From the NCBI GenBank assembly GCA_016124755.1, contig WGNA01000016.1, forward strand, positions 62,001-126,000: 64,000 nucleotides of DNA, written 5' to 3'. The DNA comes from Bacteroidota bacterium (GTDB lineage Bacteria > Bacteroidota > Bacteroidia > NS11-12g > UBA9320). The translations under genes and the position numbers were made by a program. How positions within the stretch are numbered: the stretch's first letter is position 1; each line of letters opens with the position of its first letter. The notes beneath the pieces are model-generated. The model saw nothing but the letters and a program-made list of their open reading frames with translations, did not search any database and had not been told where the DNA came from. Below, piece after piece: positions 60,351 through 60,775 of this stretch.

Positions 60351-60775
60351 ATTCTTCGCTGCGCTCAGAATTTCAATGCAAGCGTAAAACTTTGCACTGA
60401 TCAAAAAGATCATCCCAATTTGGATTGAATTGATTGATCAATTCTAATTTATAATTTCTGACCTTACCTTTAATAAACTTTTCTCTGGCTATCGCTTCAT
60501 CAATCGTATCGAACCATTCGTAATAAAGTAGAATTCCTATTTCATATTTAGCTGTAAAGGAATTTGGGTTAAAATGATTTTTGTGCTCGGACACTCTTCT
60601 CAATAAAGATGCTGTAACCCCGGTGTACAGCACTTTTCGATTCTTGCTTGTGAGAATATATACATATCCTCCTTTAAACTTTTTCATGGTAAGTCGAAAA
60701 TATAAATTCTGAGCGAAGCGAAGAATCTCAATTTAATTTTTATCAATGAACGTCATGCTGAGTGCAGCGAAGCAT
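60351..60775 (-). mobile_element. Candidate minimal mobile unit: GIY-YIG nuclease gene bracketed by inverted REP-like hairpins
   Basis: Type-B hairpin at 60351-60371 (plus orientation) and at 60706-60726 (minus orientation), with type-A partners at 60303-60321 and 60755-60775. Confidence 0.45.
60373..60687 (-). CDS. GIY-YIG nuclease superfamily protein (YhbQ/UPF0213-like)
   Basis: MKKFKGGYVYILTSKNRKVLYTGVTASLLRRVSEHK ... LLYYEWFDTIDEAIAREKFIKGKVRNYKLELINQFNPNWDDL. Confidence 0.92.
   Translation of the reverse strand: MKKFKGGYVYILTSKNRKVLYTGVTASLLRRVSEHKNHFNPNSFTAKYEIGILLYYEWFDTIDEAIAREKFIKGKVRNYKLELINQFNPNWDDLFDQCKVLRLH

What the first reader, a model, noticed from the sequence alone, without database searches (positions are those of the whole stretch)
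60351..60371. REP-like hairpin family with compensatory stem changes and a predicted GNA-triloop / tandem G.A core
A 19-21 nt element recurs about 13 times. Type B is ATTCT-TCGCTKCGCTC-AGAAT. Read on the opposite strand it is ATTCT-GA-GC-GAA-GC-GA-AGAAT: five Watson-Crick pairs, a GA/GA tandem mismatch, two G-C pairs and a GAA or GCA triloop. The inner GCGNAGC heptamer is the exceptionally stable DNA mini-hairpin sequence known from biophysical work. Outer stems covary between copies while the 11-nt centre stays conserved: ATTCT/AGAAT (20633, 24605, 59856, 60039, 60197, 60351, 60706), TGCT/AGCA (59992, 60149; G.T wobble at 60303), ATGCT/AGCAT (60755), TCTT/AAGA (20586, 24558). Near the triloop, a C-G to T-A change also occurs (GAGTGCAACGA at 24605). 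Loop variants at 20586, 20633, 59856, 60149 and 60303 depart partly from the model. Covariation implies selection for a folded form, as ssDNA or RNA, preferentially on one strand.
Basis: partly seen in the sequence, partly recalled or inferred. Interest (0 to 1): 0.85.

Follow-up and report, generated by a model that had tools for sequence, protein, structure and literature searches.

The report
Hairpin repeats paired with nuclease gene
A bacterial genome carries well over a hundred copies of a small DNA hairpin, arranged in fixed pairs, and one cluster brackets the gene for a small DNA-cutting enzyme; the same kind of enzyme is bracketed by the same kind of hairpin in many other bacterial phyla, which points to the missing partner of a known class of genome repeats.

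Summary
The repeat is real: 12 near-copies in the window (0.06 expected) and 130 in the genome (2 in the reversed control). The stem covaries strongly: 55 double-change cells against 18 in shuffles. One-sided changes favour the strand reading GAG…CGA. The GNA triloop is typical of only one of two hairpin types.

Hairpins come as head-to-tail pairs, type A (CGTC-tagged, fixed core, variable stem) then type B (no tag, fixed stem, variable core), 45-49 nt apart, 61 of 61 in that order. A 104-aa single-domain GIY-YIG nuclease gene (60373-60687, minus) lies in a symmetric A-B-gene-B'-A' element.

Homologues in many phyla are bracketed by hairpins of one general form, GTC-AYNNN…N'N'N'RT-C, and for the type tested the type beside the gene is the one dispersed in that genome. 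A second GIY-YIG gene in this genome has its own, different, repeated hairpin. Neisseria dRS3 (CGTC-1 REP) fits the same form.

Best reading: a variant of the CGTC-REP / Ssn-like nuclease kind. Cleavage and mobility are inferred. The Ssn paper was not available and is cited from memory.

The parts
60302..60775 (.). Symmetric element A-B-[GIY-YIG gene]-B'-A', CGTC tags of A and A' facing the gene
   Evidence: Inverted arms 60343-60373 / 60704-60734, 31 nt, 90% complementary; hairpins; gene
60373..60687 (-). 104-aa single-domain GIY-YIG nuclease, catalytic residues intact (Y10, Y21, G23, R31, H35, E69, N88)
   Evidence: PF01541 E 5.6e-15; invariant columns over 30 homologues; model pLDDT 90.5; nearest solved folds UPF0213 and Slx1
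60302..60322 (-). Type A hairpin, left arm of the element (strand given is the one reading GAG…CGA)
60351..60371 (-). Type B hairpin, left arm of the element (the copy named in the finding)
60706..60726 (+). Type B' hairpin, right arm of the element
60755..60775 (+). Type A' hairpin, right arm of the element (ATGCT/AGCAT)
59991..60059 (-). Dyad A (59991-60011) + B (60039-60059), 48 nt apart
60148..60217 (-). Dyad A (60148-60168) + B (60197-60217), 49 nt apart
59856..59876 (-). Lone type B hairpin
60953..60973 (-). Chimeric hairpin: left half of A, right half of B; one stem pair uncompensated
61058..61078 (-). Chimeric hairpin: left half of A, right half of B; one stem pair uncompensated
20586..20653 (-). 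Dyad A (20586-20606) + B (20633-20653), intergenic
24558..24625 (-). Dyad A (24558-24578) + B (24605-24625), intergenic; inner pair of B changed C-G to T-A
59740..61165 (.). Array region: dyads interleaved with GTTACN hexanucleotide runs

Best explanation
The hairpins are the DNA partner, most likely the recognition and cutting sites, of the single-domain GIY-YIG nuclease that they bracket. They are a variant of the CGTC-tagged class of bacterial palindromic repeats (REPs), the class to which Neisseria dRS3 belongs. Proposed mechanism: when the strand reading GAG…CGA becomes single-stranded (lagging strand, or incoming DNA in transformation or conjugation), it folds into a stem with two G.A mismatches, two inner pairs and a triloop. 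The nuclease recognises this fold plus the flanking bases and nicks it, much as the Ssn nuclease of Neisseria is reported (recalled, not read here) to do at its NTS repeat. Repair of such nicks by recombination would copy, expand and delete repeats, which would explain the arrays and the A/B chimeras, and recognition of the fold would keep stem changes compensated. Shown here: repeat, covariation, strand bias, gene-hairpin linkage across phyla, match of hairpin type to gene. Inferred: single-stranded substrate, cleavage, spread.
For: Covariation: stem positions 2 and 3 pair in 68 and 70 of 78 unique copies against 29.0 and 23.9 expected from column make-up; formal count. Strand: inner pair T.G 10, C.A 1 among 38 distinct B cores (two-sided p 0.012). 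Linkage: among 80 GIY-YIG relatives of many phyla, hairpins GTC-AYNNN-loop-N'N'N'RT-C (scanned as TC…C) occur at 2.4 per kb within 200 nt of the gene against 0.48 per kb beyond (76 and 122 hits, p 1e-23); 43 of 80 genes have one, and scrambled flanks CT…C give 0 near. Type matching: GCGAGGNACGAAGC has 19-127 copies in the six genomes whose gene carries that type and at most 7 in the other 40 (p 1e-7). A second GIY-YIG gene of this genome (52% identical) lies between inverted CGTCATCCCGGACAMCGTTCCGGGATCTC; matches to that hairpin number 20 genome-wide against 0 in the control. In Burkholderiales, small GIY-YIG genes are flanked by dRS3-type hairpins in 6 of 15 repeat-rich and 0 of 11 repeat-free genomes examined (p 0.024); two of those proteins are 40-42% identical to the window's with the same catalytic residues. 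One Tissierellaceae genome bin has two copies of the whole hairpin-gene-hairpin unit, 93% identical over 427 bp.
Against: No biochemical data. Only about half of the relatives (43 of 80) have a hairpin of this form within 200 nt. In the one Neisseria-like genome reached (L229, recognised by DNA uptake sequences), the only small GIY-YIG gene has no such hairpin within about 400 nt and is of the UPF0213 type. The stem pairs alone show little strand bias: 9 G.T against 5 A.C at the three inner stem positions in the wider set. Predicted folding energy is ordinary. No clean empty site was found: at the one orthologous site tested a relative holds a truncated remnant. In Chryseobacterium the gene stays at one conserved site.
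Confidence: 0.72

Rival explanations
1. Classical REPs mobilised by a RAYT (an HUH tyrosine transposase).
For: Short intergenic palindromes in high copy and in dimers; three Y1_Tnp genes exist in the genome.
Against: No good match to the hairpin core lies beside any of the three Y1_Tnp genes; the tag is CGTC, not GTAG, and the CGTC class is reported not to be associated with RAYTs (PMC3733652).
Confidence: 0.05
2. The hairpins act as RNA: mRNA 3' end stabilisers, attenuators or processing sites, and the gene link is incidental.
For: All window copies lie between the likely genes; RNA folding is stronger on the GAG…CGA strand (-4.0 against -1.9, -5.9 against -3.8 kcal/mol); covariation and strand bias fit RNA as well as single-stranded DNA.
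Against: No Rfam match and no terminator-like site; does not explain the matched hairpin type beside GIY-YIG genes in many phyla; B copies beside the gene lie in opposite orientations.
Confidence: 0.1
3. The repeats are passive products of recombination, and the GIY-YIG gene merely tends to insert at or near such palindromes, like a homing endonuclease using them as target sites.
For: Arrays with simple GTTACN repeats and A/B chimeras suggest much recombination; the gene is patchily distributed (10 of 19 relative genera).
Against: Inverted bracketing on both sides, whole-unit duplication, and two paralogous genes each between its own hairpin type; compensatory stem changes require a selecting agent.
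Confidence: 0.1

Closest known systems
CGTC-tagged REP superfamily (Di Nocera et al. 2013, PMC3733652)
   Same: Unpaired CGTC (or TGTC) at one end of a short palindrome, A/T pairs at the stem base, dispersed in high copy, dimers; not flanked by RAYT genes.
   Different: Dyads here are head-to-tail in 61 of 61 cases (reported as negligible for CGTC); the stem is interrupted by a GA/GA mismatch; partner B has no tag; clusters are frequent; the repeats bracket a GIY-YIG gene, whereas the paper found no dedicated enzyme.
dRS3 repeats / NIME arrays of Neisseria (CGTC-1 REPs; PMC3898611)
   Same: ATTCCC(N8)GGGAAT fits the general form GTC-ATNNN…N'N'N'AT-C; the common subtype has a GCGNAG centre; large intergenic arrays.
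   Different: Stem sequence and loop differ; no GA/GA mismatch; in Neisseria dRS3 is a phage Nf1 integration target.
Ssn, site-specific single-strand GIY-YIG nuclease and its NTS repeats (Neisseria; recalled, paper not available)
   Same: Small single-domain GIY-YIG protein; repeated palindromic target in high copy; flanking linkage in homologues.
   Different: Target sequence differs; two unlike hairpins at fixed spacing; activity not tested; direct homology to the named protein not tested.
REP / RAYT / REPIN systems (GTAG REPs)
   Same: Short hairpin dimers dispersed in a genome, with an encoding element bracketed by the same hairpins.
   Different: Enzyme is GIY-YIG, not HUH; tag is CGTC; dyads here are direct, not inverted.

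Membership tests
CGTC-tagged REPs | Unpaired CGTC/TGTC tag at one end of the palindrome | tested here: met
   Type A: ATGACG (tag CGTC) after the stem in 67 of 84 copies plus near-variants; type B: 0 of 79, so membership is claimed for A only
CGTC-tagged REPs | Uninterrupted stem of 8-9 bp with loop of 4-5 nt (as described in 2013) | tested here: not met
   4-5 bp, GA/GA mismatch, 2 bp, triloop; hence filed as a variant, not a typical member
CGTC-tagged REPs | Head-to-head dimers predominate, head-to-tail negligible (typical, not defining) | tested here: not met
   61 of 61 close same-strand pairs are A then B head-to-tail; one close opposite pair
Ssn nuclease with NTS repeats | Single-domain GIY-YIG protein with intact catalytic residues | tested here: met
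Ssn nuclease with NTS repeats | Cognate repeat flanks the gene and is dispersed in the genome | tested here: met
   in relatives
Ssn nuclease with NTS repeats | Site-specific cleavage of single-stranded DNA | not testable with these tools
   Needs purified protein
Ssn nuclease with NTS repeats | Sequence homology to the named Neisseria Ssn protein | tested here: inconclusive
   Named protein not available; two Burkholderiales GIY-YIG proteins flanked by dRS3-type hairpins are 40-42% identical, but the small GIY-YIG of a Neisseria-like genome is UPF0213-like and not flanked
GTAG REPs with RAYT | GTAG tag and adjacent HUH transposase | tested here: not met
   Tag is CGTC; three Y1_Tnp genes lack the hairpin
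Rfam RNA families | Match above gathering score | tested here: not met
   None in the window; no credible match at lower threshold over 59500-61300

The most novel reading that the evidence does not exclude
CGTC REPs as a whole are a two-part system whose missing partner is a family of single-domain GIY-YIG nucleases, found in many phyla, each matched to its own hairpin. In this genome the substrate is a composite site of two unlike hairpins at a fixed distance (A: constant core, array-specific stem; B: constant stem, array-specific core), read as one unit by the nuclease.
Probability: 0.3. Interest if true: 0.78.

Novelty: new variant of a known kind. Interest (0 to 1): 0.6.

Why it matters
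The 2013 survey that defined CGTC REPs closed by noting that they apparently lack a dedicated enzyme. Here, gene linkage, matching of hairpin type to gene across genomes, and two gene-hairpin pairs in one genome point to single-domain GIY-YIG nucleases as that enzyme. This makes the question directly testable with one small protein and a few oligonucleotides. It would also supply many nucleases, each with its own predicted hairpin target, and a simple rule for reading the target from the genome. The Ssn work on Neisseria, known to me only from memory, may already cover part of this.

Tried and rejected
RAYT partner: three Y1_Tnp genes, none with the hairpin. Rfam and terminators: nothing. Defence library: no match; NCBIfam: no match. 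Plasmid collection with the element and viral contigs with the protein: no relatives. The Ssn paper: not held by DOI or found by text search. Published text containing the repeat sequence: nothing relevant. Exact-core counts in relatives: high only in this genome and, less so, in G018, which also has the gene flanked; G044 is also raised without a gene found, and several others have high counts but also high controls, so this test is weak. The same count in genomes of other phyla is confounded by base composition in several. Empty-site test in Tissierellaceae: a remnant, not an empty site. Chryseobacterium: gene at a conserved place within hairpin arrays, no sign of recent movement. Folding energy as evidence: z-scores ordinary, dropped. 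One protein alignment included two loci read on the wrong strand and was redone.

Full report
What is there. The genome has 72 exact seeds and none of the reversed control, and 130 matches of the 19-mer within three mismatches against 2. Hairpins come in pairs, type A then type B on the same strand, 45 to 49 nt from start to start: 61 of 61 close same-strand pairs. Pairs are often in tandem arrays, and many contig ends of the assembly fall near such arrays.

The two types divide the variation. Written on the strand GAG…CGA, type A is CGTCAT-xx-T-GAGCGAAGCGA-A-yy-AACC: the core is nearly fixed and the stem letters xx/yy differ between arrays but mostly stay complementary (GC/GC, GT/AC, GG/CC, CG/CG, CT/AG, TC/GA, TT/AA, CC/GG). 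Type B is ATTCT-GAGnnnnnCGA-AGAAT: the stem is fixed and the five inner letters vary. The CGTC tag is on A (67 of 84 exact) and never on B (0 of 79).

Covariation. Copies were chosen by core alone (at most one mismatch), not by stem. At stem positions 2 and 3, 68 and 70 of 78 unique copies pair, against 29.0 and 23.9 expected from column make-up. On 52 unique 21-mers (one clear chance match left out), 55 cells carry changes on both sides against 18.2 in shuffles, and the covariation score is 0.350 against 0.092 in shuffles and at most 0.081 when partners are slid. The shuffles do not keep the relatedness of copies; the slid control does, and the contrast there is large. The signal rests on two pairs with five standard pair types each. 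No phylogeny-aware test was run.

Strand. If the fold matters on one strand, one-sided changes should leave G.T there and A.C on the other. The inner pair of 38 distinct B cores is C-G 19, T-A 5, G-C 1, T.G 10, C.A 1 (10 against 1, p 0.012). Stem changes in the strict A set are 4 against 0, but in the wider set they are 9 against 5, so the bias rests mainly on the inner pair. Folding energies agree in sign but are not remarkable against shuffles.

The gene. Between two inverted copies (60351 and 60706; arms of 31 nt, 90% complementary) lies a 104-aa GIY-YIG protein, with A copies outside on both sides: A-B-gene-B'-A'. Its catalytic residues are intact (invariant Y10, Y21, G23, R31, H35, E69, N88 over 30 homologues), the model is confident and the nearest solved folds are UPF0213 and Slx1. 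A protein search found 1315 homologues.

Relatives. A scan of about 85,000 species gave 80 relatives in many phyla. The core with at most one mismatch lies within 150 nt of the gene in 30 of them, about eleven times denser near than far (44 in 24 kb, 45 in 262 kb; the reversed control, 12 near and 17 far, is also denser near the gene, so this seed test is less clean than the next). Inverted repeats beside the other genes have other stems but one general form: GTC-AYNNN-loop-N'N'N'RT-C, with stems such as ATTGC, ATTCT, ATGCT, ATCCT, ATCCC, ATTCC, ACTCT, ACGCT, ACTGC and ATCGC, in Bacteroidota, Chloroflexota, Bacillota, Pseudomonadota, Omnitrophota, Patescibacteria, Cyanobacteria and others. Density near the gene is five times that further away, and scrambled flanks abolish it. 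That scan required paired stems, so it is evidence for linkage, not for covariation. In the window the hairpins stand in the less common of the two orientations (20 of 76 elsewhere).

Matching of type. GCGAGGNACGAAGC, the type beside the gene in six of the genomes, has 19-127 copies in those six and at most 7 in 40 others. In the window's own genome the second GIY-YIG gene (contig 32, 113 aa, 52% identical over the match) lies between inverted copies of a different hairpin of the same form, matched 20 times genome-wide with none in the control. The other GIY-YIG genes of the genome have no such hairpin nearby. Two paralogous enzymes in one genome, each with its own dispersed hairpin, is hard to explain without a functional link.

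Known kinds. Di Nocera et al. 2013 (PMC3733652; [quoted passage not shown] dRS3 is ATTCCC(N8)GGGAAT (PMC3898611) and fits the general form. dRS3-type repeats occur in 67 of 400 Burkholderiales genomes. The best small GIY-YIG gene is flanked by them in 6 of 15 repeat-rich genomes examined and in 0 of 11 repeat-free ones (p 0.024, one gene per genome). From memory, a 2025 paper describes Ssn, a GIY-YIG nuclease of Neisseria that cuts single-stranded DNA at a repeated sequence (NTS) and has thousands of homologues; it is not in the library, so this is a lead and not a test.

Mobility. One Tissierellaceae genome has two copies of the whole hairpin-gene-hairpin unit, 93% identical over 427 bp with sharp ends (one lies on a 3.5-kb contig of a metagenome bin, so contamination is possible). 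At the orthologous site of the other copy a relative has a truncated remnant. This supports duplication and decay of the unit but does not show movement. In Chryseobacterium the gene keeps its place. The two A/B chimeras in the window (60953, 61058) look like deletions between the cores of a dyad.

Conclusion. The hairpins are best read as partner sites of the GIY-YIG nuclease they bracket, a variant of the CGTC-REP / Ssn-like kind with head-to-tail two-hairpin units. Single-stranded cutting and spread are inferred.

Noticed in passing
window 20301-20760 and 24443-24900: A second repeat family: TTTAT(G/A)CTGACAATGCCG, a stretch of tens of bases, then GGCATTCGTCAGTAATTC, with inverted arms; seven left and six right arms here, more in L138, L152, L156.
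   Followed up: partly
window 59740-59990, 60105-60140, 61130-61165: GTTACN hexanucleotide runs between the dyads, in opposite sense on the two sides of 59856; partly overlapping the start of the aldehyde dehydrogenase ORF 58343-59818.
   Followed up: no
G000 contig 32:308-832 (L166, L193): Second GIY-YIG gene with its own inverted hairpin CGTCATCCCGGACAMCGTTCCGGGATCTC, 20 matches genome-wide.
   Followed up: yes
ends of G000 contigs such as C2, C4, C8, C11, C12, C15, C18, C21, C26, C32, C38: Contig ends fall inside or near dyad arrays, so the assembly breaks at them and copy numbers are lower bounds.
   Followed up: no
L058, L060, L068, L075, L076, L091 (Chryseobacterium): GIY-YIG gene at one conserved site inside long arrays of roughly 178-bp units; GTCATTCCGYAGGAATC mini-hairpins lie beside the gene.
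   Followed up: partly
L112; G066 and G071: Inverted dyads at short near-fixed spacing (about 42 nt in L112; 32-38 nt in G066 and G071), unlike the direct dyads of this genome.
   Followed up: no
window 61284-63992: Secreted-type protein with seven CHRD domains and a Por secretion tail next to the array.
   Followed up: no
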